Below the pieces are notes generated by a model. The model saw nothing but the letters and a program-made list of their open reading frames with translations. It did not search any database and was not told the DNA's origin. Positions 10,642-39,187 of a DNA stretch of 43,197 nt are shown here, piece by piece. This DNA comes from Chloroflexota bacterium (GTDB taxonomy: Bacteria; Chloroflexota; Anaerolineae; Anaerolineales; Anaerolineaceae), in the NCBI GenBank assembly GCA_012522475.1, contig JAAYKH010000027.1, positions 1 through 43,197 on the forward strand, read 5' to 3'. Positions within the stretch are counted from its first letter, which is position 1. Each line of letters starts with the position of its first letter. Both the position numbers and the translations under genes were made by a program.

Positions 10642-11142
10642 CTACCCTAAGCGCTGGACTGCGTCATTGAAGGATTGGTGATGGATATGACAAATAGCAA
10701 TTGCCAGGGCATCGGAGGCATCGTCAGGTTTAGGGATGTCTTGAAGGTTCAGAAGGGTTTTAACCATGTGCTGAACCTGGTTTTTATCAGCGTTGCCATA
10801 CCCACAAACGGTTTGTTTGACCTCATTCGGATTGTATTCAAAAACAGGCAATCCAGCCTGTGCCAGGGTTAACAACACCACGCCACGCGCCTGACCAACC
10901 GAGAGGGCGGTTTTGACATTCTTCTGAAAATAAAGTTTTTCCACTGCACTGGATTGGGGTAGATCGCGGTTAATTAGCTCGGTTAACTCAAAGTGAAGGA
11001 TCTTCAAACGCTCTGCTTCAGCAAGACCTGTGGGGGTGGCGATGACCCCAAATTCAACGTATTGATACCGAGACTGATCATCAATCTCGATCAGCCCATA
11101 ACCGGTGGCTGCCAGCCCGGGGTCAATGCCGAGGATGCGCAT
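10642..11142 (-). CDS. ruvC: Holliday junction resolvase RuvC
   Basis: A 166-residue RNase H-fold endonuclease that cuts four-way junctions bound by RuvAB. It begins MRILGIDPGLAATGYG with the first catalytic Asp at residue 7. The inner acidic glutamate lies in AVEKLYF, and the last acids are in DDASDALAIAICH. FQKNVKTALSVGQARGV is the conserved DNA-binding helix region. It starts six bases after the yebC stop and ends five bases before the methyltransferase start, consistent with one transcript. The pairing of yebC with ruvC and ruvA is common in bacteria. Confidence 0.96.
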   Translation of the reverse strand: MRILGIDPGLAATGYGLIEIDDQSRYQYVEFGVIATPTGLAEAERLKILHFELTELINRDLPQSSAVEKLYFQKNVKTALSVGQARGVVLLTLAQAGLPVFEYNPNEVKQTVCGYGNADKNQVQHMVKTLLNLQDIPKPDDASDALAIAICHIHHQSFNDAVQRLG

Positions 11143-22227: not shown

Positions 22228-23478
22228 CTAGCCTTCACCCTGCGCTAACAGCCCCCGGTATACATCCAGCATTTGAGTCGTAATCGCTTCCCAACGAAAA
22301 TTTTGGGCATATTTTGCTGCCTGCGCCCCTAAGTGGGCGCGTAATTCCGCATCGATAAAGACCAGGCGCAGCTTTTCCGCCAGTGCATTTGGATCCTGCA
22401 TCGGGACGGTGTAGCCGGTTTGACCATCTTTGATTAGATGGGCCAACCCCCCAACCCGTGAGGCAATGACCGGCGTTCCACATGCCATCGCTTCGAGCGC
22501 TACCATGCCAAAACTCTCGTAATGGGAGGGCATGACAACCACTTCAGCAGCGGCATAGTAATAGGGTAAGGTCATCTGGCCGCGCTTGCCTAAAAAGAGG
22601 ATCATATCTTTTAAGCCCAATTCCTGGCATAAGGCCCGGATGCGGGCCATTTCAACGGACATTTCGTTCGGGTCTTCCTCAGGGTCTCCGCCAATGATGA
22701 CCAGGTAATGGGGACAGCGGAAAGATTTACAGGTTTGTTTAAGAATACCCATCGCCTTGATCAAGGTATCGAGTCCTTTCAGGGGTTCCACCCTGCCTAC
22801 AAAAAGTGCCATGCGATCCTGTGCCGGGATGCCGATCGCCTCCTTGGCTTCATCCTGTGCAATGGGGTAGAAGTGGTGCGTGTCCACGCCCGGAGGGATG
22901 ATGGTGATTTTCTCAGGGTTGACGTCGTACAGGGTAACCAGTTGTTCACGCTCTGCATCAGTGGCGGCGATGATCCCCTCTGCGGCAGACATCACTTCTG
23001 TTTCGCCGACGATACGATATTCACCTTCGTATTCCTCCAGGGAACGGGCGATTTGTTGTTTCAATAAACCCAGGGTGTGGAACATTTGCAGCATTGGAAT
23101 ACCCCATTGGGCCTTTAGCAGGATGCCAGCTTTTCCAGACATCCAGTAATGGGCATGGATCAGATCATAGCGGATGTCCTTCCGGGCCGCGAATTCGAAA
23201 ACCCCTTTTGCAAAGACGTCGGTGTAATTCCATATCTGGTCTTTTGGCAGGAAGTTTTCTGGCCCGGCGGGGATATGGACAACGCGGTTGAAATACCCCA
23301 GGTCGTGTGAAACCGAAGGAACGTGTTCATCTTGAGAGCGGGTGAAGACATCCACCCGCACACCCTGTCGACCTAAAAACCGGGTCAATTCGCGGACATA
23401 GACATTCATTCCGCCCGTATTTTTTCCGCCCAGGATCGCCAGCGGACAGGTGTGGTAAGAAAGCATCGCGATGTTCAT
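22228..23478 (-). CDS. GT4-type glycosyltransferase, MshA/sucrose-phosphate-synthase-like
   Basis: A 416-residue GT-B enzyme. The N-terminal domain has KNTGGMNVYVRELTRFLG, DVFTRSQD, VHIPAGPE and HAHYWMSGKAG. The C-terminal domain has LFVGRVEPLKGLDTLIKAM and the E-x7-E motif in HYESFGMVALEAMACGTP. This pattern is shared by MshA (which transfers GlcNAc to inositol phosphate) and sucrose-phosphate synthases; the donor and acceptor cannot be told from the sequence. A PIG-L deacetylase is present 13 kb away but there is no sign of a mycothiol pathway. CGGGAG precedes the ATG. The start region faces the tRNA promoter. Confidence 0.88.
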   Translation of the reverse strand: MNIAMLSYHTCPLAILGGKNTGGMNVYVRELTRFLGRQGVRVDVFTRSQDEHVPSVSHDLGYFNRVVHIPAGPENFLPKDQIWNYTDVFAKGVFEFAARKDIRYDLIHAHYWMSGKAGILLKAQWGIPMLQMFHTLGLLKQQIARSLEEYEGEYRIVGETEVMSAAEGIIAATDAEREQLVTLYDVNPEKITIIPPGVDTHHFYPIAQDEAKEAIGIPAQDRMALFVGRVEPLKGLDTLIKAMGILKQTCKSFRCPHYLVIIGGDPEEDPNEMSVEMARIRALCQELGLKDMILFLGKRGQMTLPYYYAAAEVVVMPSHYESFGMVALEAMACGTPVIASRVGGLAHLIKDGQTGYTVPMQDPNALAEKLRLVFIDAELRAHLGAQAAKYAQNFRWEAITTQMLDVYRGLLAQGEG

Positions 23479-23502
23479 TAATGTGGGCTCCCGAAGTTTA
23501 TC

Positions 23503-23532
23503 TTGTCAACAAATATTCTTTACTGGTATAAT
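23503..23532 (+). promoter_or_regulatory. Promoter of tRNA-Thr
   Basis: TTGTCA (23503-23508) and a perfect TATAAT (23527-23532) are 18 bases apart. The tRNA begins nine bases after the -10 box, so the primary transcript has almost no 5' extension. Confidence 0.65.
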
Positions 23533-23541
23533 GCCTTACAT

Positions 23542-23613
23542 GCCAACGTAGCTCAGTGGTAGAGCAGACGCTTCGTAAGCGCCCGGTCGAGGGTTCAACT
23601 CCCTCCGTTGGCT
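23542..23613 (+). tRNA. tRNA-Thr (anticodon CGT)
   Basis: A 72-base cloverleaf. The acceptor arms GCCAACG and CGTTGGC pair perfectly. There is a D arm GCTC/GAGC, an anticodon arm with loop TTCGTAA giving anticodon CGT for codon ACG, and a T arm GAGGG-TTCAACT-CCCTC. The anticodon stem has one A-C mismatch. The discriminator base is T and the 3' CCA is not encoded. It is a single tRNA with its own promoter and terminator. Confidence 0.95.
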
Positions 23614-23625
23614 TTTGCGAAAAGC

Positions 23626-23654
23626 ATACAGCTCATTGAGCTGTATTTTATTTT
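23626..23654 (+). terminator. Intrinsic terminator of tRNA-Thr
   Basis: ATACAGCTCA and TGAGCTGTAT are perfect inverse complements around one T, followed by TTTATTTT. It lies 12 bases after the tRNA. Confidence 0.8.
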
Positions 23655-23797
23655 AACGGATTAATCAGGGTTTGGTGAACGTGAGGCTCTGCAAATAATC
23701 CTTTTTCAATAAAATTATGATAGACGTTGTTCCATATTATTAAAAAACAAACCTCAGCCTGGTAAAAACTGTTTTTGACCGCGAGACGATGATTCTG

Positions 23798-24586
23798 TTA
23801 AGCAGAGGTGTCACTTTGTGGTGTTGGTTTGCTGAACTTGAACGCATTCAGGCGGTGAAGCAAAACCAGGTTTCCGTAGGTGACCAACATGGCAATCGGG
23901 ATGAGCCATACGGAAGGCAGTCCCAAATAGACCAGCCCCAGAATCAGCGCGTTAATCACCACCTCCAGACCCACTGCCGCCCCCAGCCACAGCTTATTGT
24001 TCGAGGTGAAGTACTCCAGGACGAGGATTGTTATGGTGATGTGCATCACCAAAGCCGCAATGCGTTCAAAAGATCCCGCCAGCGGCACCCAGGGGGAGAC
24101 TTTCCAAAGTTCATTCAGCTGTGCCATGATTTCAGGTTCAAGATGGCTGGTTTGGGAATTGATACCCCTCACCATGGTGAAAAAAGTCATCAATAATGGC
24201 AGGCCTACCCGGGTGATACTTTCGATGCCGCCAAAACCCAGGCCAATTCCGTAAGCGGCCTCAAGGTTAATCAACGGCATTTTAAGGTACTTCATCCCTG
24301 CCCAACGCAGCGTCATGCCCAGCAAGGCGGTGATGAAAATGCTGATCACGAGGTGGAAAAGGTTGTCGATGTCAACAAGAGGTTGCGAGGTTTCAATTTT
24401 CATCAGGAAAGCGAAGCCACTGTAAAGAAGGGTGAAGAGGGCCTGAACAATGAAATAACCTAATGCCCCTAAGGTGATCACCTGCCAAGTGACCTTCAGG
24501 TGTTTATTGATCCACACGCCTGCCAAGACAGGCAGGCCAATCGTTACCAACAGAGCGAAGACAATACTTATGCTGAGGATCATCAT
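23798..24586 (-). CDS. YhfC-family membrane protein (putative intramembrane protease)
   Basis: A 262-residue integral membrane protein with about seven helices. AAYGIGLGFGGIESI and GSFERIAALVMHITITILV match the family's conserved G-x-G-x-G-G-x-E and E-R...H motifs. YhfC (DUF2324) proteins are grouped with glutamic-type intramembrane endopeptidases of the PrsW/CPBP superfamily, where the conserved Glu and His form the catalytic site in the membrane. AAGGATC lies before the tandem ATGATG start. It begins 12 bases after the acyl-CoA synthetase stop and is probably co-transcribed with it. The reason for that pairing is not clear. Confidence 0.75.
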   Translation of the reverse strand: MMILSISIVFALLVTIGLPVLAGVWINKHLKVTWQVITLGALGYFIVQALFTLLYSGFAFLMKIETSQPLVDIDNLFHLVISIFITALLGMTLRWAGMKYLKMPLINLEAAYGIGLGFGGIESITRVGLPLLMTFFTMVRGINSQTSHLEPEIMAQLNELWKVSPWVPLAGSFERIAALVMHITITILVLEYFTSNNKLWLGAAVGLEVVINALILGLVYLGLPSVWLIPIAMLVTYGNLVLLHRLNAFKFSKPTPQSDTSA

Positions 24587-24598
24587 ACCGTCTGATCC

Positions 24599-26698
24599 TT
24601 AATTTTCAGAAAATATCATGCGCGCGTCCAGTACGAGGGTGCCCTCTCCCTCGGGCAGCACCAACAGCGGATTTACCTCTACCTCAGCAATCCTGGGGTG
24701 ATCCAACGCCAGCTGGCTCAGCCGGCCGATCGTATCGACGACGGCATGCAGATCGTATACGACCTTGCTACGATAACCCTGCAATAACTGTCCGGCTTTG
24801 GTTGAGGCAACCATTTCAAGAGCCTGGCTTGGCGTCAGGGGAACGATTCCAAAGCCGATATCTTTGAACAACTCCACATACACGCCACCCAGCCCAAACA
24901 TCATCAAAGGGCCAAAGGTCGAGTCGCGCTTCATGCCAACGATGACCTCCATTCCCTTAGGAGCCATCTTTTGCACTAAAAACCCTGAAATTTCAGCTTG
25001 GGGTGCAGCGGTTGTGATCGTTGCGACCATGCGCTGCAGGGCTGTTTTCAAAGCCTCAGCCGAGTTGAGGTTAAGAGCGATCCCGCCCAGATCAGATTTG
25101 TGAAGAATATGGGGCGAAAAAATTTTTAGCGCCACCGGGTAGCCCAGTTCTTCGGCAATGGCCAGTGCTTCATCGTGATTGGTTGCGATCTGGCCAGGCA
25201 CCAGGTTTAGGCCATAGGCAGCCATAATGGGCCGAGATTCCGCCTCGGTCAATACCCGTTGCTCTGTTTGAGCTAAAATTTCAGCGACTCTGTCTTTTTC
25301 TAGATTAGAGAACACAAAGGGTCCTGTCTGCGAACGCTGCCGCCATTGGCGATAGGTGCGCATTGCTCCCAGCACCTTTCCGGGAACTTCAGGGTAGGTA
25401 CTCATCGGGATCTTGTTGGCGTGCAATATCGCCCGCGCTTCTGAAATGCTCTGTTCACCAACCATGCAGGCTAAGATGGTTTTGTCGATTGTTTTAGAGT
25501 TTTCGACAACGGCGCGGGCAATATCTGCCGGATCCACCAGTGATTGTGGAACCAGCATGGGTATGAAAACGTCGATACTGGGTTGATCGCCAAGCACATT
25601 CAGGCAATGTTCAAAGTCATGTGCCTCGGCGCCGCCAAGCATATCCACTGGATTGGCAACCTGGGCGCTGGGGTTGAGCTTTTCTGCCAATTGGCTTTGT
25701 TTTTCAGGAGTGATTTCTGCTAACGTAAACCCGTGTGTAGCCAGGGTGTCCGCTGCTAGGGCGGCCGGACCGCCAGAGTTGGTCAGGATGACGACCTGGT
25801 TGTCTTTAGGTAGGGGCTGGCAGCTCAGGGCCCAGGCGACATCAAACAGGGCGCTGAGGTCCTCAACCTCAATTACACCGGCTTGTTTAAAGGCAGTCTG
25901 GTATGCCGCATAAGATCCCGCCAGGGATCCGGTATGCGAGGAGACCGCTTTGGCACCGGCATTTGTACGCCCTGCTTTTAGCAGGACGACCGGCTTTTCT
26001 TGTGAGACCTGGCTGACGACCTCAATGAAACGCTGACCGTGTTCGATTGCTTCCACATAGGCCGCAATTACCTTCACCTGGGGGTGAGCTCCAAAATAAG
26101 CGATGACATCGGTTTCATTTACATCCAGCTCGTTGCCCAGGCTGGCAAAATGGGAAAAGCCGATCCCCTTATCCCCAATCAAATCGACCACACCGCCACA
26201 GACCGCGCCGGATTGAGAGACAAAGCCAATCGAGCCCCTGGTGGGCACACCTTCAACGAAAGTGCTGTTGAGGCCAGTATACAAATCCATTGTGCCGACG
26301 CAATTCGGGCCAACCAGGCGCATCTGGTAACCCTGTGCAATTTGGAGGCATTCTTTCTCCAATGCCACCCCCGCACCGCCCACCTCTTTAAAACCACCCG
26401 AAATAATGATGGCCGCCTTGATGCCTCGTTCACCACACGCGCGCAGGATCTCAGGGGTCAGCGGCGCCGGTAAAACGACCACAGCCAGGTCTACGGGATC
26501 GGGGACGACACCTACGTCCGGGTAGGCTGTTAAGCCCAGAATCTGGTCGGCTTTAGGGTTGACGGGATAGATTCCACCTTGAAAGCCATACCGGAGCATG
26601 TTTTTTAGAATGCCATGGCTGAGCTTGCGGGGGTCTTGCGAAGCACCGATGATGGCCACCCCAGTCGGTGAGAAAAATGGAGCCAAACTCTCGGTCAT
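24599..26698 (-). CDS. ADP-forming acyl-CoA (acetate-CoA) synthetase, alpha-beta fusion
   Basis: A 699-residue protein combining three parts. The CoA-binding Rossmann domain is at about 1-130 (VAIIGASQDPRKLSHGIL). Succinyl-CoA-ligase-like domains follow at about 140-450, with the phosphohistidine segment SSHTGSLAGSYAAY. An ATP-grasp domain occupies about 480-699 (GYPVALKIFSPHILHKSDLGG, EVEVNPLLVLPEG). Such fused enzymes convert acyl-CoA, ADP and phosphate to acid, CoA and ATP, giving substrate-level ATP in fermenting cells; some relatives are protein acetyltransferases (Pat), but no GNAT domain is seen here. AAGGAACC precedes the ATG. Acyl specificity is unknown. Confidence 0.92.
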   Translation of the reverse strand: MTESLAPFFSPTGVAIIGASQDPRKLSHGILKNMLRYGFQGGIYPVNPKADQILGLTAYPDVGVVPDPVDLAVVVLPAPLTPEILRACGERGIKAAIIISGGFKEVGGAGVALEKECLQIAQGYQMRLVGPNCVGTMDLYTGLNSTFVEGVPTRGSIGFVSQSGAVCGGVVDLIGDKGIGFSHFASLGNELDVNETDVIAYFGAHPQVKVIAAYVEAIEHGQRFIEVVSQVSQEKPVVLLKAGRTNAGAKAVSSHTGSLAGSYAAYQTAFKQAGVIEVEDLSALFDVAWALSCQPLPKDNQVVILTNSGGPAALAADTLATHGFTLAEITPEKQSQLAEKLNPSAQVANPVDMLGGAEAHDFEHCLNVLGDQPSIDVFIPMLVPQSLVDPADIARAVVENSKTIDKTILACMVGEQSISEARAILHANKIPMSTYPEVPGKVLGAMRTYRQWRQRSQTGPFVFSNLEKDRVAEILAQTEQRVLTEAESRPIMAAYGLNLVPGQIATNHDEALAIAEELGYPVALKIFSPHILHKSDLGGIALNLNSAEALKTALQRMVATITTAAPQAEISGFLVQKMAPKGMEVIVGMKRDSTFGPLMMFGLGGVYVELFKDIGFGIVPLTPSQALEMVASTKAGQLLQGYRSKVVYDLHAVVDTIGRLSQLALDHPRIAEVEVNPLLVLPEGEGTLVLDARMIFSEN

Positions 26699-26796: not shown

Positions 26797-28923
26797 ATGC
26801 AGCTCACTGATGAACAAAGTTTGCTAATTAACCAGGCGATCGATTCCAGGATATTCATTCAGGGACGGGCAGGCTCGGGGAAAACAACGGCAGCGGTGCA
26901 CTGGCTTCAAAAGCTTCTAGCTTCCGGCGTACCTGCCCACCAGATTCTGGTGTTTACGCCGCAGCGAACCCTGGCGCAGCCTTATCTGGCGTGCATGCGC
27001 GATACGATAACGCCAGTAAACAGTTTAATCACCACGATGACCCTGGGCGGGTTGGCCAGGCGGATGGTGGATTTGTTCTGGCCGTTGATCAGCCAGGAGG
27101 CCGGTTTTGCTCTCCCGAATCAGCCCCCGCACTTTCTGACGCTTGAATCGGCCCAGTATTATATGGCGCATGTGGTCAGGCCGCTGATTGAAAACGAAGG
27201 TTATTTTGAAAGCCTGGCGATTAACCGCAACCGGATTTATGCTCAAATTTTGGATAATTTGAATAAAGCTGCCATTGTGGGGTTTTCAATCGAGGAAATT
27301 GGCCCGCGATTAAAATCTGCCTGGGTTGGCGGTATTGAGCAATTTAATATTTATGATGATGTGCAGCACTGCGCAGAGCGTTTTCGTCAATTCTGCCTGG
27401 CGCATAACCTGCTGGATTTCTCTTTGCAGGTGGAAATCTTCCTGCAGCATCTCTGGCCGTCGAGGCTCTGCCGCGAGCATCTCAACCAGTCTTATCGGCA
27501 CCTGATTGCCGATAATCTGGAAGAAGACACCCCTGTTACCCACGATCTTCTCAGGAGCTGGCTTCCAGATTTTGAATCGGCGTTGTTAATCGCTGATGAA
27601 GCAGCTGGTTTTCGGTCTTTCCTGGGCGCAGATGTGGTCAGCGCGTTTTCTTTAAGCGTAGCCTGCGAGACGCGTTTGTGGTTCAATCAAAACTTAGTTA
27701 ACGAAGCTGGTATTGCCCAGTTGAAAACGGGGCTCCAGGCGGTGATCAGCCAGCTTCAGGCGCGGGGCATGGAGGACGCTGGCGGTTCTACAGCCCTCCT
27801 GCGAGAAGCGCTGCACATGCCAGATGAACCGATTAAATTATTTCCATCAATGGTGAAATGGGTCACCACGCAGGTGGCGGCTCTGATTGAAGATGGGGTT
27901 CCGCCCGGCGAGATCGTTCTACTGGCGCCCTATATGCCGGACGTGTTGAAGTTTTCGCTGGGTGAAAGACTGGATGCGCTGGGCATACCGCACCAATCCC
28001 ACCGACCTTCGCGGGCTTTGCGAGATGAACCCGATACACAGACCCTGCTGACCCTGGCGATGCTATCCTTCCCAAATTGGGAATTGTCAGCCCAGCCGGT
28101 TAACCTGGCAACGGCCTTCATGCAGTCCATCGAGGGGTTAGACCTGGTGCGGGCGCAATTACTGGTTAACCTGGTTTTTGAACCGAATAGTGAGACGTTT
28201 CCCCTCAAGCCCTTTGAAACAATCCAACCCCAGTTTAAGGAACGCATCACTTACCGTGTGGGGGAGCGTTACGATAGGCTGCGGGAATGGCTGCTGGACG
28301 CTGCCCAGAGGGAAGGCCAACAGAATCTCGATTTTTTCCTCAGTCAGTTATTTGGTGAGGTGTTGAGCCAGCCCGGCTTCGGATTTCACAATGATTTGGT
28401 GCGCGCTAACCTCGTTTCAACGCTGATCGAATCGGTGCAAAAATTCCGCTGGGCGATGGGGCACCAGAAAGTCATAGAAAATGGCGACACCGGCAGGGAG
28501 TACCTGCAAATGGTGCGGGATGGTGTGATCGCCGCTCAGTATCTGCACAGTTGGGAAGAACGCTCACCCGATGCCGTTTTCATCGCGCCAGCGCACACGT
28601 TTTTAGTCAGCAACGAGCCGGTGGATATTCAGTTTTGGCTGGATATTGGCAGTCCCAGCTGGTATCAGCGCCTGAATCAACCCCTGACCCACCCTTATGT
28701 GCTCAGCCGGCATTGGAAAGCCGGTCAGGTTTGGGATGCAGAGGATGAATTGGCAGCTGCCCACGCAACCCTGCGCCGCTTGACCATAGGATTGCTCAAC
28801 CGCTGTCGAAAACAGGTTTTTATTGGCCTGAGCGCTCTGGATGTGCGCGGTTATGAAAATCGGGGTTTATTGATCCGGATTATTAATGAAGCCTGGCGGC
28901 GCTCACTGGAGGAGGTTGCATGA
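26797..28923 (+). CDS. AddB-like superfamily 1 helicase subunit without nuclease domain
   Basis: A 708-residue UvrD/AddB-like protein. Walker A is GRAGSGKTT (residues 23-31) and motif Ia is ILVFTPQRTLAQPY. The Walker B region reads IADNLEEDTP, with N240 where UvrD-type helicases have the catalytic Glu of DE-x-Q-D. Motif VI is poorly kept (LLNRCRKQVFIGLS), and there is no C-terminal PD-(D/E)XK domain. It may therefore bind ATP without being the main motor, as AddB does in AddAB. It is translated from a probably leaderless message. Its TGA overlaps the next gene's ATG (ATGA). The four-gene overlap chain points to a stable complex for processing DNA ends. Confidence 0.75.
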   Translation: MQLTDEQSLLINQAIDSRIFIQGRAGSGKTTAAVHWLQKLLASGVPAHQILVFTPQRTLAQPYLACMRDTITPVNSLITTMTLGGLARRMVDLFWPLISQEAGFALPNQPPHFLTLESAQYYMAHVVRPLIENEGYFESLAINRNRIYAQILDNLNKAAIVGFSIEEIGPRLKSAWVGGIEQFNIYDDVQHCAERFRQFCLAHNLLDFSLQVEIFLQHLWPSRLCREHLNQSYRHLIADNLEEDTPVTHDLLRSWLPDFESALLIADEAAGFRSFLGADVVSAFSLSVACETRLWFNQNLVNEAGIAQLKTGLQAVISQLQARGMEDAGGSTALLREALHMPDEPIKLFPSMVKWVTTQVAALIEDGVPPGEIVLLAPYMPDVLKFSLGERLDALGIPHQSHRPSRALRDEPDTQTLLTLAMLSFPNWELSAQPVNLATAFMQSIEGLDLVRAQLLVNLVFEPNSETFPLKPFETIQPQFKERITYRVGERYDRLREWLLDAAQREGQQNLDFFLSQLFGEVLSQPGFGFHNDLVRANLVSTLIESVQKFRWAMGHQKVIENGDTGREYLQMVRDGVIAAQYLHSWEERSPDAVFIAPAHTFLVSNEPVDIQFWLDIGSPSWYQRLNQPLTHPYVLSRHWKAGQVWDAEDELAAAHATLRRLTIGLLNRCRKQVFIGLSALDVRGYENRGLLIRIINEAWRRSLEEVA

Positions 28924-31166
28924 CCCAACCGAGCATCCGTTTGCGCTCCGGGCAGGAAGCGGTATTGCGTTACCAGGGCGGACGAATGGGGATTAGTGCT
29001 GTGCCCGGCAGCGGTAAAACCTGGACGCTGGCGTATCTGGCAGCCAATTTGATCAAACGCGGTGTTATTGATGCTGACCAGGAGATCCTGGTGGTGACTC
29101 TGGTGAACGCGGCGGTGGATAATTTTTCATCCCGGATCAGTCAGCAACTTCAGGTTGAGGGTCTGCTGCCAGGCTATGGTTACCGGGTGCGAACCCTGCA
29201 CGGGTTGGCTAATGACATCGTGCGTGAACGCCCTGACCTGGCTGGTTTGAACACCAACTTTCAGATTATCGATGAATTTGAATGCGACCGGATAAAAAGC
29301 AGGATTGCCAAGGATTGGATCGCATCTCACCCGGGCTATCTGGAGCCATACCTTGAATACGCACCAAACCAGAAAAACCAGGTTTTTTCAGCCCGGCAAA
29401 ACCTGCCCAGAACGATCGAACAAATCGCCAATGCTTTCATTCGCCTGGCTAAAGACCGGGAATTAATGCCTGCGGATATCGAAAAGAAATTGGGCAAATT
29501 GCAAATCCCGCTGCCGCTGGTCAGGATGGGATTGGACATGTACACAGAGTATCAAAATGCACTCACCTATCGGGGTGGGGTTGACTTTGACGACCTGATC
29601 AGGCTGGCCCTGCGCTGCTTGCGCTCTGATCCATCTCTGTTGGTGCTGCTGCGCAAACGCTGGCCATTTATTCTTGAAGATGAAGCTCAGGATTCAAGCC
29701 GCCTGCAACAGGAAATCCTCTCCCTGCTGGCTGGTGATGGGGGCAATTGGGTGCGGGTGGGCGACCCTAACCAGGCTATTTACGAAAGCTTTACGACGGC
29801 CAGCCCGCAATTCTTGCTCGATTATCTGGCGCATCCCAACGTTGAAGAACGGACCTTGCCTGAAAGTGGCCGTTCGACCCAGGATATTATTGATCTGGCC
29901 AACCACATGATCATGTGGACGCAGACGGACCATCCTAATCTGGGTGTCCGCAACGCGCTGACACCGCCATTCATCCTGCCAACACCCTGGGACGACCCTC
30001 AGCCCAACCCGCCAGCATGTCCTGCCTGTATTCGCTTGCTTACACAGGGCATGGGGCCTGATGAGGAAATGCGCCATGTCGTCAAAACAGCCCAATCTTT
30101 CCTTGAAAAGCAACCGGATCAGACGGTGGCGATCCTCTGCCTGAGCAATGAACGGGCGTATAAATATGCCGAACTGCTCAAACAGGAGCATGTTCCCTGC
30201 GTGGATAGCTTGCTCCGCTCGTCAAGTTCGACTCGCCTTTCAACGGATGCAATGGTTACAATTTTACGCAGCCTGGCCGATCCAACCTCCAGCCGAAAGT
30301 TGGCAGAAGCCTATAAAATTTGGCGGCGCAAGGCGCATGAGGATGAAGCTGCCTGGAAATTCCATCAGGGGGTGGCGAGACTGGTCGGTAAGTGCCGTAA
30401 CCTGGAAGATTACCTGTGGCCTTCAGGCGGCCAGGACTGGCGGGCCGAGACGGCAGAAGAAGGCGGCGAACCAGCTGTACTGGATGAGCTGCGGGCCTTC
30501 CAAGGTCTTGTTCAGCGCTGGCATTCAGCGGTGATTTTACCCATCGACCAGCTCTTGTTAACCATTGCCCAAGACCTGTTTCTTGATCCGGTTGAACTTG
30601 CTCTGGCTTATAAACTTTCTACGTTACTGCGCCAGATGAGTGATGCGCACCTGGAATGGCGGTTGCCTCAGTTTATCGATGAGCTGGTGACGATCACGAA
30701 GAATGAACGTAAATATCTGGGTTTCTCTGCAGATGATGACGCCTTTGACCCGGATCGCTACCCAGGGCAGGTGGTTGTAGGCACGATGCACAAAGCCAAG
30801 GGCTTAGAATGGGATTGCGTGTTTCTGACCGCACTCAATAACTATAATTTTCCCTCAGGTGCTCCTTATGACCAATAGCTGCCTGAAAAATGGTTTGTGA
30901 AAGGTCAGCACAACCTGGAAGCTGAGACAATTTCACAATTGATGACCCTGATTGAAGACCACCCCTACGGGTGGTATCAACCTGGTAAGGCAACCCTGGA
31001 TGCTCGGGAGGAGTTTATCCGCGAACGTTTGCGGCTGCTGTTTGTTGGCATCACCCGTGCCCGCCGCTGGCTTTTGATCAGCTGGAATATCGGCAAATCC
31101 ACAAAAAAGAGTGTGCCAGCAGAGGCCTTTACCGCGCTATTAAATTATTTGGAGCGCCAGCAATGA
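28920..31166 (+). pseudogene. UvrD/AddA-like DNA helicase interrupted by in-frame TAG
   Basis: A 748-codon superfamily 1A helicase frame. Motif I is SAVPGSGKT (K33), motif II ILEDEAQDSS (D254, E255), motif III GDPNQAIYES and motif V TMHKAKGLEWD. A TAG at 30876-30878 (codon 653) follows APYDQ. The same frame continues with LPEKWFVKGQHN and motif VI RLLFVGITRARRWLL. The 652-residue product would lack motif VI, whose arginine is needed for ATP hydrolysis, so it should not be a working motor. The rest shows no decay, and the downstream ATGA overlap with the nuclease gene is intact. Readthrough is possible because TAG followed by C is a weak stop, but error or recent loss is equally possible. Confidence 0.85.
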
Positions 31167-32002
31167 TTCTTCCCAAGAATTTTATTTTCACCCAGGGCAA
31201 CCTCCAGGACTTTGTTGATTGCCCATACCGTTTTTACCTGCGATATATTCTGCGCACCAGTTGGCCAGCCCTGGTGGTTGACCAGGCGCTGGAATTTGAG
31301 CAACGCGGCCAGGCCGGCGGGCGCTTTCATCGTTTTGTGCAGCAATATTTGCTGGGTGTACCGCCAGAGCGGATTGATGGGTTGGTGGATGGAGACCCGC
31401 TGCCTGATTTACGTCGCTGGTGGGCAGGTTTTATAGCGCATGTGCCGCCCTGGCTGGAGGGTCAGCGCTGGGTGGAAATGACCGTGACAGCGACCCTGGC
31501 AGGACAGCGGCTGGTGGCTAAATATGACCTGATCCTTTTGGATGAGAAGGGCAATCTGACCATATTTGATTGGAAGACATCGAAAAAACCTCTGAGCGCA
31601 GCGCGACTTTTAGAGCGTATTCAAACCAGGCTCTACCGTTTGGTGTTGTTACAAGCCAGCGCCAGCCTTTTCAACTTGCAGCCAGTTGAACCGGAGCAAA
31701 TAACCATGCGTTACTGGTATGCTACCCAACCTCAAATGCCGATCACCCTGGTTTACAGTCAATCGAATTACGAAAACGATCTGGCTTACCTGACAGATCT
31801 AATTGAAACCATTTCCAACGCGCAGGAAAATGATTTTATTCGCACTGCTGACCTCGCCAGGTGCCGGTTCTGTGTTTACCGGTCGCATTGCGAGCGTGGC
31901 GTTGAAGCGGGCAGTCTGGACGATTTTGACTACCTGGACTTGGAGCAGGATGAGGCCGATCTGTTAATCGACTTTGAAGACCTACCAGAAATCGAATTCT
32001 AA
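31163..32002 (+). CDS. PD-(D/E)XK nuclease with Fe-S cluster cysteines (AddB/Cas4 type)
   Basis: A 279-residue stand-alone RecB-family nuclease. FTQGNLQDFVDCPYRFYLRY supplies the first cysteine. GGRFHRFVQQYL gives the motif I histidine. DLILLDEKGNLTIFDWKTSKK gives the D...D-x-K catalytic core, and IQTRLYRLVLLQA the Q-x-x-x-Y helix. Near the end CRFCVYRSHC has C-x2-C-x5-C spacing, which with the first Cys matches the 4Fe-4S staple of AddB and Cas4-like nucleases. It is linked by ATGA to the helicase upstream and by TAATG to recJ. It most likely works as the nuclease subunit for the two helicase proteins. No cas genes are nearby, so a Cas4 role is unlikely. Confidence 0.85.
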   Translation: MILPKNFIFTQGNLQDFVDCPYRFYLRYILRTSWPALVVDQALEFEQRGQAGGRFHRFVQQYLLGVPPERIDGLVDGDPLPDLRRWWAGFIAHVPPWLEGQRWVEMTVTATLAGQRLVAKYDLILLDEKGNLTIFDWKTSKKPLSAARLLERIQTRLYRLVLLQASASLFNLQPVEPEQITMRYWYATQPQMPITLVYSQSNYENDLAYLTDLIETISNAQENDFIRTADLARCRFCVYRSHCERGVEAGSLDDFDYLDLEQDEADLLIDFEDLPEIEF

Positions 32003-34314
32003 TGTCCGTAGAAAAGACCTGGGTATTCACCGAAACGCACTCCATTCCACCTGCATTTCAAGAAGCCATTGGCGGGCATCCGCTGGTGGCCCAGACGCTT
32101 TATGAGCGTGGCATCCGGACGATCGAAGCAGCCCTGGCGTTTTTAGATCCCGCACTTTATCAGGCCGCCAATCCTTTTGATTTACCCGATATGGACACCG
32201 GTTGTGAACTGCTGATGGGTGCCATCCGTGAACAATTGCGCATCCTGGTGTGGGGTGATTTTGATGTCGACGGCCAAACGGCGACTGCAGTCTTGGTAGA
32301 GGGGTTGCGAAGCCTGGGCGCAAACGTGCGTTATCATATCCCGGTGCGCGCGGAGGAATCCCACGGCATCCGGAAAGATGCCCTCAAAACCTATCTGGCG
32401 CAGGGATTTCATCTGCTGTTGACCTGTGACACGGGGATTACCGAATATGAGAGCTTGCAATTGGTGCATAATCTGGGCATCCCGATCATTGTCACCGATC
32501 ATCATCTGCTGGGTGAAAGATTGCCGCCCGCGGATGCAGTGATCAACCCCCAGCGATTGGAGCCCGGGCATCCCTTGTGCACGCTGCCAGGGGTGGGTGT
32601 GGCTTACAAGTTAATTGAAGGCTTGTATTCAATCTTGGGGGAGGTACAAGATTTGGGGCACCTGCAGGAACTGGTTGCCCTGGGCATTGTGGCGGATGTG
32701 GCAGAGCAGCAGGGTGACACGCGCTACTTGCTGCAAAAAGGGCTGGAAAATTTGCAGAAAACCAGCCGGATTGGGTTAAACCTTTTGTATGAGAATGCTG
32801 AACTCAACCCCGAAAACCTGAATGAGGGACACATTGGCTTTCAGATTGCGCCGCGCCTGAACGCGGTTGGGCGATTGGGTGATGCCAACCCGATGGTGAC
32901 GTTCTTAACCACAGATGATCGGGCTGAGGCTCGGCACCTGGCGACCCTGATTGAAGGGATGAACATCAAACGGCGGGCGGAAACGCGCCAGGTGGAACTG
33001 GGCGCCGAGGCGCAATTGCAGGCATCCAGTGAGGATCGACATGCACCGGCGATTGTGCTCCACCACCCTGGCTGGCCGGGCGGCGTGGTTGGGATTGTCG
33101 CCAGCCGTCTTGTGGAACGCTACCATAAACCGGCGATCCTGCTGACGGGCGAAGACTCAATTCATGGTTCGGCGCGCTCGATACCCGGATTTGATATCAC
33201 CGAAGCGATTGGCGCCCAGGCCGACCTGTTGACCGGCTATGGGGGACACCCGATGGCAGCCGGCTTGTCCCTGCCCGCCGAGCATTTCCCTGCTTTTAAA
33301 CGGCGTTTTTTAAAAACGTTTACAGCTCAAAGACTACCATTCCCCCGTGGCGAAGTGACTGAGATTGCTCAGTCATTGACCATTGCCGAGGTGAACCTGG
33401 AACTGGTGCGCGACATTGCCCGTTTGGCGCCTTTTGGCCCCGGCAACCCGGCTTTGAATTTCCTGGTGGAGAATGTGCGGGTGGTATCCCAATCTCTGGT
33501 AGGGATTGAACGTGAACATCGCCAGGTGACTGTTGCTGATCGAGAAAATAATGAGCTGCGTTTGATCTGGTGGAATGGCACTGATACACCTCTGCCGAAG
33601 GCGCAATTTGACCTGGTTTGTAAATTGACCGAAAGCGATTATCGAGGCATTCCCCAGTTAAGCGCTGAATGGATTGATTTTCGTCTTTCGGCGGCTGGCA
33701 AAGAAGAAATTGCAGACCGCCAGATTAAAATTGTGGACTGCCGCAATTTGGAAGACAAACAGGCAGGTTTAGCAAGCTTAGTGCAGGAACATCCATACGC
33801 TGTGATTTGGGGTGAGGGTGAACTGACAGGGGGAACCTTCTTCAGGGGCAGGCACAAGCTTGAAAGGTCGTCGCACCTGGCCATCTGGACCACGCCGCCC
33901 TCACAAGCCGTTTTACGAACGGTTTTGGATCAAACGCACGCGAACCAGGTAACGGTTTTTGCTGTAGACCCGGGCAGTGATGATTTAGAAAGTTTCATGT
34001 CCCGTTTGGGCGGTGTGGTTAAATATGCTCTAACGGGTTTGGGCGGAACTGTTCAGCTGGATCGATTGGGAGCAGCCTGCGCGGCGGACGAAATGGCGGT
34101 GCAGACGGGTGTGTTATTGTGGCAGGCCAGGGGTGAGTTTTCGGTTGCCTTCGTTGGGGAGACTGTTCACTTCAGTGCTGAGAAACCGGATGCCAACCCA
34201 GGGGCGATTGAACATTTTGAAGCCCTACTAAAGGAATTACTGGCCGAGACCCGGGCTTATCGAGGGTATTTTCACAAGGGGGACTTGGTGTCGATCATCA
34301 CCCACTCTTGGTGA
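32002..34314 (+). CDS. recJ: Single-stranded-DNA-specific 5'-3' exonuclease RecJ
   Basis: A 770-residue DHH-family exonuclease. The metal-binding motifs are WGDFDVDGQTATAVL, LTCDTGITEYE and VTDHHLLGERLPPADAVINP, followed by the glycine-rich DHHA1 region (GWPGGVVGIVASRLVERYHKPAILL, GYGGHPMAAGLSL). An OB fold comes next, and then an additional C-terminal domain of about 200 residues with weaker similarity to anything known. RecJ resects 5' strands in RecF-type repair, mismatch repair and base excision repair. Its ATG shares one base with the previous stop (TAATG), so it is produced with the nuclease. Placement inside an AddAB-like operon suggests joint end resection. Confidence 0.93.
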   Translation: MSVEKTWVFTETHSIPPAFQEAIGGHPLVAQTLYERGIRTIEAALAFLDPALYQAANPFDLPDMDTGCELLMGAIREQLRILVWGDFDVDGQTATAVLVEGLRSLGANVRYHIPVRAEESHGIRKDALKTYLAQGFHLLLTCDTGITEYESLQLVHNLGIPIIVTDHHLLGERLPPADAVINPQRLEPGHPLCTLPGVGVAYKLIEGLYSILGEVQDLGHLQELVALGIVADVAEQQGDTRYLLQKGLENLQKTSRIGLNLLYENAELNPENLNEGHIGFQIAPRLNAVGRLGDANPMVTFLTTDDRAEARHLATLIEGMNIKRRAETRQVELGAEAQLQASSEDRHAPAIVLHHPGWPGGVVGIVASRLVERYHKPAILLTGEDSIHGSARSIPGFDITEAIGAQADLLTGYGGHPMAAGLSLPAEHFPAFKRRFLKTFTAQRLPFPRGEVTEIAQSLTIAEVNLELVRDIARLAPFGPGNPALNFLVENVRVVSQSLVGIEREHRQVTVADRENNELRLIWWNGTDTPLPKAQFDLVCKLTESDYRGIPQLSAEWIDFRLSAAGKEEIADRQIKIVDCRNLEDKQAGLASLVQEHPYAVIWGEGELTGGTFFRGRHKLERSSHLAIWTTPPSQAVLRTVLDQTHANQVTVFAVDPGSDDLESFMSRLGGVVKYALTGLGGTVQLDRLGAACAADEMAVQTGVLLWQARGEFSVAFVGETVHFSAEKPDANPGAIEHFEALLKELLAETRAYRGYFHKGDLVSIITHSW

Positions 34315-36399: not shown

Positions 36400-37578
36400 A
36401 TGGAAAACGAAGCCAGTTATTATAACCAGGACTTTCAAGCAAATGGCGTGGCAACAGTCTCAATCGGCCACGCCATTCACGATGGTTATGCCGCCTTTCT
36501 GCCAGCCCTTTTACCCCAACTGATTGATAAATTTGCCCTCAGCAATACCGCGGCAGGTTTATTAACCGTTTTTTATCGATTACCCTTTTTAGTACAACCT
36601 TTTATTGGTTGGCTGGCAGATCATGCGAATTTACGCTGGATGGTGATCCTGTCGCCAGCCATTACCGGCGCAGTGATGAGTTTTCTTGACCTGGTGCCAA
36701 GCTATGGGTTTATACTCTTTCTGCTCCTTCTTGCCGGGATTAGTTCAGCGACGCTGCACGCTACCGGGCCGGTGATTAGCAGTGCGCTCTCGGGAAAGTA
36801 TTTAGGACGAGGGATGAGCTTTTGGATGGTGGGGGGCGAATTGGGACGCGCCATGGGTCCGGTCATTATTGTTACTGCGATCACCTATTTGTCGGTAGAG
36901 AGTGTTCCTTGGTTAATGCTGGGCGGTGTGTTAACCTCTATATTTTTGTTCTTTAAATTGGATGGCATTTCAACACAAACACAACATTTAATTGCTCCGG
37001 TTGATTGGCGACAAAGTTTAAAACAATTAGGGCAGTTAATGATGTTTTTGGGAATAATCTCTTTCTTGCGTTATATTACCATGGCTTCACTGACCATCTA
37101 CCTGCCCACATTTTTAACCCAGGAAGGCTCCACACTGTGGATGGCTGGTTTTTCGCTGACCATTTTTGAATTAGCGGGTATCGGGGGTGCTTTTCTGGCG
37201 GGTGTGTTAAGTGATAAATTTGGGCGCCGCCGCATGCTGGTTGTCTCATCAATTGCAACACCGATTTTCATGCTTATATTCCTTTATGCAAATGAGTGGT
37301 GGAAACTACCGCTGTTGATGCTGATGGGCTTCTTTTCTCTGGCTGCGGTACCGGTGTTGATGGCGATTGCGATCGAAAACGCCAAAGATCAACGGGCCTT
37401 TGCCAACGGCCTCTTTATGGCGGTTTCATTATTGGCGGAAGCCCTGGCTGTGGTGTTGGTGGGGCTATTTTCAGATCGGTTTAGCTTCAATTTGACCTTC
37501 CTGGTTAGCGCGGCTGCAATGCCTTTAACCCTGCCCTTTGTGCGTATGCTGCCAAAGTCGGTGAAAAATCGGGGTTAG
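36400..37578 (+). CDS. MFS transporter, fosmidomycin-resistance (Fsr)-like
   Basis: A 392-residue, 12-helix major facilitator protein. SIGHAIHDGYAAFLPALLPQL is the Fsr-type first helix (H-x-x-x-D-x-Y...L-P). The loop after helix 2 reads GWLADHANLRW, and the second half has GVLSDKFGRRRMLV, a good MFS motif A. Relatives export fosmidomycin and other small compounds, but natural substrates are mostly unknown. It appears to be a single-gene unit with a weak hairpin and a T run about 50 bases after the stop. Annotation as a drug exporter is by similarity only. Confidence 0.85.
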   Translation: MENEASYYNQDFQANGVATVSIGHAIHDGYAAFLPALLPQLIDKFALSNTAAGLLTVFYRLPFLVQPFIGWLADHANLRWMVILSPAITGAVMSFLDLVPSYGFILFLLLLAGISSATLHATGPVISSALSGKYLGRGMSFWMVGGELGRAMGPVIIVTAITYLSVESVPWLMLGGVLTSIFLFFKLDGISTQTQHLIAPVDWRQSLKQLGQLMMFLGIISFLRYITMASLTIYLPTFLTQEGSTLWMAGFSLTIFELAGIGGAFLAGVLSDKFGRRRMLVVSSIATPIFMLIFLYANEWWKLPLLMLMGFFSLAAVPVLMAIAIENAKDQRAFANGLFMAVSLLAEALAVVLVGLFSDRFSFNLTFLVSAAAMPLTLPFVRMLPKSVKNRG

Positions 37579-38017: not shown

Positions 38018-39187
38018 TTACTCGCTGGTCGGGGAAGGCGCTTCGCCCAAGAAGTGCAACGTGTTGTAATCTGAGGTCAGGATCAGGCGGTTCTTTTCCA
38101 TCTGGATGACCAGTTCGTCCTGCAATGCCTCAATGAAGGCTGCTTCAATGTCCATACTGGTGTCGCAAAACTTTGCCGTCAGACTGATGAGGTTAATTGT
38201 CAGGTGATCCCCATCCAAGACGTAACTGCCCGTATAGTTGTTGCAGCCTGCGCTTCCTGAAACGGTGCCATCATTACTTTCACCCTCAGGTGAAAGCGTC
38301 AGGGAAACGTGGATGTCTGCGGGAATGTCTTCGCCATTGCGTGTGTATAAACGCCATTGTGTGTTTTCCAGCGTCAGGTCTGCCGTGAAAAAGGTCATCA
38401 CTGTTGTAAAATCTTCAGAGGACAAAACCAGCTGGTCTTCAATGATCTCGTATTGAGAGACTGCTTCCAGTGCATTTGTGAAGCTTAATTCCAAGTCCAT
38501 CAAGCCCTCACAATACATCATCGTGCTGGCAATCATCCCGAAAGAGATGCTCCTGTCGGTGGCCTCGAAGGATGACCCGATCGTGTTGCATCCGCTATTT
38601 CCGTACATACCATCTTTTTCTGACAGGTTTAACCAGGGCACATCGGTTGACGGAACGGGGATATCGCCGTCCGATGTGATCAGAGAACTCAGCACCCAGT
38701 CGGTGTCACGAAGCGTCGGCGTTGGCCTATTGACGAAAAGCATGAAATTATACCCTTCTGCTGATTCTTTAAAATTGATCACTAGCTGATCATCTTCATT
38801 GACAAAGGCGCTCTTAGCTGATTGAATTGCCGCCAAAAAGGTTGCTTCTTCATCCATAAAGCCTTCACAAAACATGAGGGTTGAACCTACGGGCTCAGTG
38901 AGTTTGAAACTGCCCTGTTTGGTTACTTTGTAAGAACCAAAAAAGTTATTGCAACCCCCGTTTCCATACAGGTTGCCATCTGCCTCGAAGGCTAAAAACG
39001 TCTTTAGGCCCGGGGTAACTGGCACAGTTTTTTCTTTGTTGCCATAGGCGACGAGGTGCCAGGTGCCGGAATAGAGGGTTTCTAAGGAGGTGAATCCTTT
39101 TTGTCCGGCAAGTGGGACGCAGGCTGCGAAAAGTGTTGCTGCAAGGATAAGCATAAGTGTTGCTTTGAGCGTTAAGTATTTTTTCAT
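38018..39187 (-). CDS. Lipoprotein with three META (HslJ-like) domains
   Basis: A 389-residue exported protein. The N-terminal signal LMLILAATLFAAC ends in a likely lipobox cysteine. It then carries three consecutive META domains, at about 35-145, 155-262 and 270-385. Each has the pattern W-x-L, then a strand with G-N/S-x-G-C-N (GNGGCNNFFGSY, GNSGCNTIGSS, GSAGCNNYTGSY) and a later MxC-E/D-x-x (LMFCEGFMDEE, MMYCEGLMDLE, AKFCDTSMDIE). One Cys in each half could form a disulfide. HslJ-type proteins are linked to envelope stress and novobiocin resistance in Escherichia coli; the role here is unknown. It is a single-gene unit facing away from the DeoR gene. Confidence 0.88.
   Translation of the reverse strand: MKKYLTLKATLMLILAATLFAACVPLAGQKGFTSLETLYSGTWHLVAYGNKEKTVPVTPGLKTFLAFEADGNLYGNGGCNNFFGSYKVTKQGSFKLTEPVGSTLMFCEGFMDEEATFLAAIQSAKSAFVNEDDQLVINFKESAEGYNFMLFVNRPTPTLRDTDWVLSSLITSDGDIPVPSTDVPWLNLSEKDGMYGNSGCNTIGSSFEATDRSISFGMIASTMMYCEGLMDLELSFTNALEAVSQYEIIEDQLVLSSEDFTTVMTFFTADLTLENTQWRLYTRNGEDIPADIHVSLTLSPEGESNDGTVSGSAGCNNYTGSYVLDGDHLTINLISLTAKFCDTSMDIEAAFIEALQDELVIQMEKNRLILTSDYNTLHFLGEAPSPTSE

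What the first reader, a model, noticed from the sequence alone, without database searches (positions are those of the whole stretch)
26797..34314. Split AddAB-like machine fused into an operon with recJ
Four genes overlap by ATGA, ATGA and TAATG: an AddB-like helicase without nuclease domain, a UvrD/AddA-like helicase, a separate PD-(D/E)XK nuclease with the 4Fe-4S cysteine pattern of AddB, and RecJ. In known AddAB and AdnAB the nuclease domains are fused to the helicase chains. Here the modules are separate, and a 5'-3' exonuclease is made with them. Seen: motifs and overlaps. Known: the AddAB and RecJ roles. Inferred: a single complex for DNA end resection that may replace RecBCD/AddAB.
Basis: partly seen in the sequence, partly recalled or inferred. 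Interest (0 to 1): 0.72.

Follow-up and report, generated by a model that had tools for sequence, protein, structure and literature searches.

The report
Split AddAB-like set with own RecJ
Many bacteria of one Chloroflexota class carry a set of four separate genes that looks like a DNA-end trimming machine taken apart into pieces, which seems undescribed; here it sits beside, and does not replace, the ordinary version of that machine.

Summary
Four genes overlap by ATGA, ATGA and TAATG: an inactivated SF1 helicase most like AddB's helicase part (hel1), a UvrD/AddA-type helicase without nuclease (hel2), a free RecB-type nuclease with AddB-type cysteines (nuc), and a RecJ.

The interpretation needs correcting. 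But 11 relatives at least 90% complete have nuc (10 with hel1 and hel2 beside it) and no long RecB-nuclease protein.

The unit is real. In 150 Anaerolineae genomes hel2 occurs in 92 of 94 hel1+ genomes and 0 of 56 others; nuc in 83 of 94 and 0 of 56, even where scattered. The operon RecJ is a separate paralogue clade. The whole cassette also sits, in order, on a Salinibacter plasmid.

Best reading: a taken-apart, single-PD-(D/E)XK-nuclease AddAB/AdnAB-type resection module with a dedicated RecJ. One physical complex is untested. New variant of a known kind.

The parts
26797..28923 (+). hel1: 708-aa inactivated SF1A (UvrD-fold) protein, like the helicase part of AddB; Walker A GRAGSGKT intact, motif II DExQD replaced by D-N-x-E-E-D
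28920..31166 (+). hel2: UvrD/AddA-type SF1A helicase without nuclease domain, motifs I and II intact; about 747 codons, interrupted in this genome by TAG
30876..30878 (+). in-frame TAG in hel2, not present in the 13 relatives aligned; motif VI lies after it
31163..32002 (+). nuc: free-standing 279-aa PD-(D/E)XK (RecB-type, PF12705) nuclease; Cys 20, 234, 237, 243, D122, W137, K138, Q154, Y158 invariant and D136 in at least 90% of 43 sequences
32002..34314 (+). recJ2: 770-aa RecJ paralogue with the RecJ catalytic motifs
33679..34311 (+). C-terminal extension of recJ2 (about 210 aa), not in the 35 housekeeping RecJs compared (560-672 aa)
28920..28923 (+). ATGA overlap hel1/hel2
   Evidence: coordinates and stop/start
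31163..31166 (+). ATGA overlap hel2/nuc
32000..32004 (+). TAATG overlap nuc/recJ2

Best explanation
The four genes encode one DNA-end-processing module, an AddAB/AdnAB-type helicase-nuclease taken apart into separate chains and made with a dedicated RecJ. Hel2 is the only active motor and unwinds from a DNA end (3'-5', as for its UvrD/AddA relatives). Hel1 is an inactivated SF1 helicase that binds ATP but should not translocate; like the AddB and RecC helicase-like domains it would hold or channel one strand. Nuc supplies the single RecB-type nuclease and, as the counterpart of the AddB nuclease, would cut the 5'-ended strand. RecJ2 would extend degradation of that 5' strand, leaving a 3' overhang for RecA. 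Shown: domain content, catalytic and Cys residues, profile relationships, co-occurrence, the joint cassette in another phylum. Inferred: ATP binding, polarity, strand choice, physical contact, role in break repair.
For: Profile comparison maps each chain to one AddAB part: hel1 to AddB profile positions 10-572 (97.1%) over AddA (91.5%); hel2 to AddA (99.9%); nuc to AddB 745-1025 (97.0%) over AddA (34.7%). Hel1 model (pLDDT 87.9) has the whole SF1A fold; AdnB Z 24.2 over 619 residues at 4.8 A, AddB Z 20.8 over 606 at 6.3 A. Nuc model (86.4): AdnA nuclease Z 18.6, 2.7 A over 224; AddB nuclease Z 15.7, 3.2 A over 233. Hel1 has N240 in place of the motif II glutamate in all 50 aligned sequences while the Walker A lysine stays; hel2 keeps DEAQD. 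Co-occurrence in 150 genomes: hel2 92 of 94 against 0 of 56; nuc 83 of 94 against 0 of 56; at least 2 RecJ hits in 72 of 94 against 8 of 56; AddB unrelated (33 of 94 against 14 of 56, p 0.21). In 28 of 82 genomes with all three of hel1, hel2 and nuc, none lies within 12 kb of another, and still all are kept. The 25 operon RecJs, plus one dispersed copy, form one clade among 61 RecJs (support 1.0). The same four genes in order lie on Salinibacter plasmid pSR56.
Against: No interaction or activity was measured, and complexes could not be predicted. No hel1-nuc or hel2-nuc fusion was found that would show contact (105 loci, 12 more). Hel1's fold matches UvrD at least as well as AddB (Z 28.5, 7.8 A over 553). 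All 8 genomes of family f20 keep hel1, hel2 and nuc but have one RecJ hit each, of the housekeeping clade in the two that were checked (G382, G402), so RecJ2 is dispensable. 13 of 41 genomes have neither nuc nor a long RecB-type-nuclease protein, so the role cannot be essential everywhere. In this genome hel2 carries a stop, so the module may be off here. Fisher p values ignore shared ancestry.
Confidence: 0.62

Rival explanations
1. An anti-invader system: the set destroys foreign linear DNA, as Gabija-like UvrD systems or UvrD-Cas4 fusions are thought to do, and repair is not its main job.
For: The cassette sits on a Salinibacter plasmid that also carries type I restriction-modification genes and a large DEAD/DEAH helicase. 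PADLOC GajB models match hel2 (6e-42). UvrD-Cas4 fusions lie in defence contexts (PMC5704561, section 8).
Against: Around the window's operon the neighbours are housekeeping-like (acyl-CoA ligase, YhfC, DegV) and partly conserved in the genus; of ten neighbours only a DeoR regulator weakly matched a PADLOC model (CasR). No GajA match among the pieces (for hel2 25 of 51 matches were shown) or the neighbours. Within most families presence is all or nothing rather than patchy: both states in 4 of 46 families (one genome per species, strains not seen). No relative of hel1 found in 50,697 phage records or in the pattern scan of IMG/VR.
Confidence: 0.2
2. Two independent pairs, hel1-hel2 and nuc-RecJ2, share a pathway but not a complex; nuc-RecJ2 enlarges gaps while hel1-hel2 unwinds.
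For: Where linkage is partly lost, hel1-hel2 stay together without nuc in 13 of 82 genomes, and nuc-recJ2 stay together without hel1/hel2 in the stretches fetched from three genomes of one genus (L160-L162).
Against: Nuc is not found without hel1 (0 of 56 hel1- genomes; two weak matches dropped) and only once without detected hel2 (G366, 520 contigs); f20 keeps nuc and lacks a second RecJ; 6 of 82 genomes keep hel2-nuc together without hel1.
Confidence: 0.13
3. The overlaps reflect only co-regulation of unrelated repair genes.
For: Overlapping genes are common in bacterial operons (recalled); all four are repair-type genes.
Against: Co-occurrence persists when the genes lie apart on one contig (G382: 2.2, 0.2 and 1.0 Mb), and all four stand together in another phylum.
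Confidence: 0.05

Closest known systems
AddAB (Bacillus subtilis type)
   Same: Active SF1A motor plus inactivated SF1 partner plus RecB-type nuclease with the C...C-x2-C-x5-C cysteines of the AddB nuclease; AddB, AddA and AddB C-terminus are the best matches of hel1, hel2 and nuc among the profiles compared
   Different: Three chains instead of two; one RecB-type nuclease instead of two (AddA's is missing); a RecJ paralogue is made with it; hel1 and AddB align only at profile level. Chi response unknown.
AdnAB (mycobacteria)
   Same: UvrD-like motors plus RecB-like nuclease; the AdnA nuclease domain is the closest solved structure to nuc, AdnB among the closest to hel1
   Different: AdnA and AdnB each carry motor and nuclease in one chain (PMC13309787, passages); AdnAB was reported only from Actinobacteria (PMC6452273, passages). 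No AdnA/AdnB profile was available for sequence comparison
Unfused UvrD + Cas4-like (pfam12705) gene pair, mostly Clostridiales (PMC5704561, section 8)
   Same: UvrD-like helicase and PF12705 nuclease as separate genes of a predicted operon in a non-defence context; repair role suggested
   Different: No inactivated helicase and no RecJ mentioned in that section; its relation to hel2/nuc was not tested here
RecJ of the RecFOR pathway
   Same: DHH, DHHA1 and OB domains; D-x-D-x-D, DHH and GGH residues in 26 of 26
   Different: Separate clade from the housekeeping RecJ of these genomes, with an extra C-terminal region of about 210 aa; RecJs with C-terminal regions are known from other bacteria (recalled)

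Membership tests
AddAB | AddA: SF1A helicase and nuclease in one chain | tested here: not met
   hel2 has no PF12705 match, before or after the stop; the AddA of the same genome does
AddAB | AddB: inactivated helicase and Fe-S nuclease in one chain | tested here: not met
   hel1 ends at 708 aa without nuclease; nuc is a separate gene; no fusion in 105 loci or 12 more
AddAB | Sequence kinship of the parts | tested here: met
   hhalign 97.1, 99.9 and 97.0% against AddB, AddA and AddB C-terminus
AddAB | AddA and AddB equivalog scores (NCBIfam) | tested here: not met
   hel2 69.3 bits against addA_Gpos cut-off 707.65; nuc 14.7 against addB_alphas 486.5; hel1 no Add model. The two-chain AddAB on C78 also stays below the cut-offs (303.6 and 131.7 bits), so the test is strict for this class
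AddAB | Inactivated helicase motifs in the B subunit | tested here: met
   N240 in place of the motif II glutamate in all 50 aligned sequences, Walker A lysine kept
AddAB | Four Cys for an Fe-S cluster in the B nuclease | tested here: met
   C20, C234, C237, C243 invariant in 43 sequences; arrangement as described for AddB/Cas4 (PMC3466216, passages). That a cluster is bound was not tested
AddAB | Stable complex; Chi recognition | not testable with these tools
   no complex prediction or assay available
AdnAB | Motor and nuclease domain in each of two chains | tested here: not met
RecBCD (RecB) | RecB equivalog score | tested here: not met
   hel2 82.2 bits against cut-off 696.05
RecBCD (RecC, RecD) | RecC and RecD present | not tested
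   no RecC or RecD family search was run in the genome
RecJ | recJ equivalog score and DHH/DHHA1 motifs | tested here: met
   475.3 bits against 396.9; D-x-D-x-D, DHH and GGH residues in 26 of 26
Cas4 | Cas4 equivalog score | tested here: not met
   TIGR00372 14.5 bits against 65; TIGR04328 21.9 against 70
Gabija | GajA nuclease beside a GajB helicase | tested here: not met
   PADLOC: GajB-type matches for the helicases, no GajA for nuc, RecJ or hel1 (for hel2 25 of 51 matches were shown) or for ten neighbouring proteins

The most novel reading that the evidence does not exclude
A fourth architecture of bacterial end-resection machine beside RecBCD, AddAB and AdnAB: one motor, one dead-helicase strand holder, one detachable RecB-type nuclease and a dedicated RecJ paralogue working as one module. 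It is the only resection machine in many Anaerolineae that lack AddAB/RecB, and is portable as a four-gene cassette between phyla.
Probability: 0.38. Interest if true: 0.75.

Novelty: new variant of a known kind. Interest (0 to 1): 0.58.

Why it matters
Bacterial break resection is described as three fused-chain machines. A conserved, taken-apart version would let motor, strand holder and nuclease be tested one by one, and would directly link RecJ, usually assigned to the RecFOR path, to an AddAB-type enzyme. It would also offer a candidate for genomes of a large environmental class in which no AddAB/RecB-sized nuclease protein was detected. The Salinibacter plasmid copy offers a route in a cultured organism.

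Tried and rejected
Replacement of AddAB in this genome: rejected, since an addB-addA pair is on C78. It is called so from size, adjacency, domains and best NCBIfam models (addB_Gpos, addA_Gpos), though both score below NCBI's cut-offs. RecJ as the cell's only RecJ: rejected, since a 590-aa housekeeping RecJ is on C35. Gene fusions as proof of contact: apparent long frames (G385, G431, G349, G337) were checked. G385 and G431 showed no fusion; G349 and G337 hel1 lie in longer frames (1237 and 928 aa) whose extra N-terminal part matched none of my six profiles and was not followed. TAG read as an amino acid: rejected, since TAG ends other reading frames of the window that I took as genes (36400-37578, 22228-23478, 10642-11142; the first two have Pfam families). 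Long-standing pseudogene: unlikely, since dN/dS after the stop is 0.11 against 0.08 before it, compared with G005; a recent mutation and a base error cannot be told apart here. Phage origin: no match to hel1 in phages or in the pattern scan of viral contigs. Fold search could not separate AddB-, AdnB-, AddA- and UvrD-type for hel1. A weak hel1-like match on an Ilyobacter plasmid (22%) has no such partners annotated within 8 kb and was not followed. Literature: the listings (titles, starts of abstracts) of searches showed no description of this gene set, and searches found no paper. Of six papers I saw passages only, and of one of these also a whole section, which holds the closest case. Most subscription journals are not in that library.

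Limits of the counts: AddB presence in the class was read from a match list cut at about E 6e-15, with open frame 750 aa or more; weaker ones would be missed. G379 (644 aa, cut) was counted as present; G421, G440 and G381 were left out at first and added, giving 35 of 94 and 15 of 56. Weak hel1 matches (G229, G358) and weak nuc matches (G338, G380) were dropped before counting. RecJ counts include gene fragments. Duplicate loci were recognised by equal contig length. 406 of the 486 hel1 relatives were not shown.

Full report
OBSERVATION. Pfam gives a weak UvrD match for hel1 (708 aa), strong UvrD-helicase and UvrD_C matches for hel2, PDDEXK_1 for nuc (279 aa), and DHH, DHHA1 and RecJ_OB for the 770-aa RecJ. 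The 13 relatives aligned are open at that place. The reading frame after the stop is still under purifying selection when compared with the closest relative (dN/dS 0.11 after, 0.08 before), and TAG is used as a normal stop elsewhere in the window. So the stop is recent or an error of the assembly.

THE PARTS. I compared profiles built from relatives with profiles of the two-chain AddA and AddB of the same order. Hel1 matches AddB profile positions 10-572 best (97.1%, 510 columns), ahead of AddA (91.5%) and hel2 (87.2%). Hel2 matches AddA best (99.9%), though among solved structures it is nearest to PcrA/UvrD (1.1e-36) and then AddA (1.1e-21). Nuc matches the AddB C-terminus (97.0%) and hardly AddA (34.7%). 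Hel1 keeps the Walker A lysine, but N240 stands where the catalytic glutamate of motif II would be, in all 50 aligned sequences; the model places it right after the strand of residues 235-238. Hel2 keeps EDEAQD, invariant. Nuc keeps its four cysteines and D122, W137, K138, Q154 and Y158 in all 43 sequences, and D136 in at least 90%. AlphaFold models are confident for hel1 (pLDDT 87.9) and nuc (86.4). The nuc model lies closest to the AdnA nuclease domain (Z 18.6, 2.7 A, 224 residues) and then to the AddB nuclease (Z 15.7, 3.2 A, 233 residues). The hel1 model has the full SF1A fold and does not discriminate within it: UvrD Z 28.5 (7.8 A, 553 residues), AdnB 24.2 (4.8 A, 619), AddA 21.1 (5.2 A, 627), AddB 20.8 (6.3 A, 606).

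RECJ. The operon RecJ is not the cell's only RecJ: a 590-aa RecJ lies on C35. In a tree of 61 RecJs, the 25 operon copies and the dispersed copy of G035 form one clade (support 1.0), apart from 35 housekeeping copies. The operon RecJs are 763-862 aa against 560-672 aa, and the D-x-D-x-D, DHH and GGH residues stand in 26 of 26.

SAME GENOME. The window's genome (2.26 Mb, 98.6% complete) also has addB (1014 aa) and addA (1141 aa) of standard two-chain build, adjacent on contig C78. Their best NCBIfam models are addB_Gpos (131.7 bits) and addA_Gpos (303.6 bits), below NCBI's cut-offs. Among 41 genomes (own and 40 relatives), 8 have nuc and AddAB, 18 have nuc and no PF12705 protein of 750 aa or more (11 of them at least 90% complete, of which 10 show hel1 and hel2 in the same locus), 2 have AddAB only, and 13 have neither. 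In G006, G011, G013 and G016 nuc is the only PF12705 protein found. RecC and RecD were not searched.

DISTRIBUTION. In 301 Chloroflexota genomes, full-length hel1 (E below 1e-80) occurs in 24 of 25 genomes of the order (own genome included), 7 of 13 of the rest of the class and 0 of 263 outside it; the other matches (E 2.9e-9 and weaker) mostly cover the Walker A region. In 150 genomes of the class, all at least 90% complete: hel1 94; hel2 92, all among the 94; nuc 83, all among the 94; 56 have none (four weak matches dropped). At least two RecJ hits occur in 72 of 94 hel1+ and 8 of 56 hel1- genomes. As a contrast, AddB is not associated with hel1 (33 of 94 against 14 of 56, p 0.21; with three omitted genomes added, 35 of 94 and 15 of 56). 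These p values ignore ancestry; hel1 varies within only 4 of 46 families. Of 82 genomes with all three of hel1, hel2 and nuc, 35 have them within 12 kb, 13 keep only hel1-hel2 near, 6 only hel2-nuc, and in 28 none is near another. Contig breaks explain part of this, but in G382 the three lie 0.2, 1.0 and 2.2 Mb along one contig. Keeping all three without linkage speaks for joint function more strongly than the operon does. In family f20 (8 of 8) all three are kept with one RecJ hit only, so RecJ2 is the loosest member.

GENE ORDER. Of 96 distinct loci (25 chosen by nuc and 80 by hel1, minus 9 that appear twice), 47 have all four genes in the same order and strand, 33 of them with gaps of 100 bases or less; 17 are cut by a contig or locus end, and 32 are incomplete with room left. 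No fusion of hel1 or hel2 with nuc was seen.

TRANSFER. hel1 has no relative found in the phage records or in the IMG/VR scan, but a 42.8%-identical one over 97% of its length on plasmid pSR56 of Salinibacter ruber M8. There the complete cassette hel1-hel2-nuc-recJ stands in the same order, each member matches its own profile strongly, and its RecJ falls inside the operon RecJ clade. The plasmid also carries a type I restriction system, a DEAD/DEAH helicase and dinB, which keeps a defence role open. A block of exactly these four genes in another phylum is strong evidence that they are one unit, RecJ included.

MECHANISM. Inferred from AddAB: inactivated helicase domains of AddB and RecC share the SF1 fold but lack most motifs and are thought to recognise Chi, and the AddB nuclease degrades the 5'-ended strand to give a 3' overhang (PMC4824097, passages). 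By analogy hel2 pulls, hel1 holds, nuc cuts the 5' strand and RecJ2 (5'-3' on single strands by family) lengthens the overhang. None of this was assayed.

NOVELTY. The nearest printed precedent that I found is an unfused UvrD and Cas4-like pair, mostly in Clostridiales, in a context not indicative of defence (PMC5704561, section 8). The named machines AddAB and AdnAB carry their nuclease domains on the helicase chains (PMC4824097 and PMC13309787, passages), as does RecB (recalled); 88% of the genomes of one survey have RecBCD, AddAB or AdnAB (PMC6452273, passages). The listings of searches showed no description of this set; searches found no paper. I file it as a new variant of a known kind: it is built like AddAB/AdnAB taken apart and probably works like them, but it is not a member by chain architecture.

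Noticed in passing
window 30876-30878: In-frame TAG in hel2 upstream of motif VI, while relatives are open; either a recent nonsense change in an organism that also has AddAB, or a base error.
   Followed up: partly
L212 9950-17833 (NC_014028.1, Salinibacter ruber M8 plasmid pSR56): The complete four-gene cassette in another phylum, on a plasmid with type I restriction-modification, a DEAD/DEAH helicase and dinB.
   Followed up: partly
window 33679-34311: About 210-aa C-terminal extension of the operon RecJ, diverging fast (16-56% identity to the window's in 17 relatives), of unknown role.
   Followed up: no
L160, L161, L162 (family f118): nuc and recJ2 adjacent without hel1 or hel2 in the stretch fetched, so the operon can split into a nuclease pair and a helicase pair.
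   Followed up: partly
L163 4560-8273 and L164 2842-5628: hel1 lies in much longer open frames (1237 and 928 aa) whose N-terminal extra part matched none of six profiles.
   Followed up: no
window 22228-26698: Counterparts of the glycosyltransferase, YhfC metalloprotease and acyl-CoA ligase genes lie in 9, 17 and 19 of 105 loci around the operon (duplicates included).
   Followed up: partly
window 38018-39187: Protein with three META-domain matches, without a counterpart in the 105 compared loci at the threshold used.
   Followed up: no
L213 7998-9971 (Ilyobacter polytropus plasmid): Weak hel1-like UvrD-fold protein (22% identity) without annotated partners nearby.
   Followed up: no
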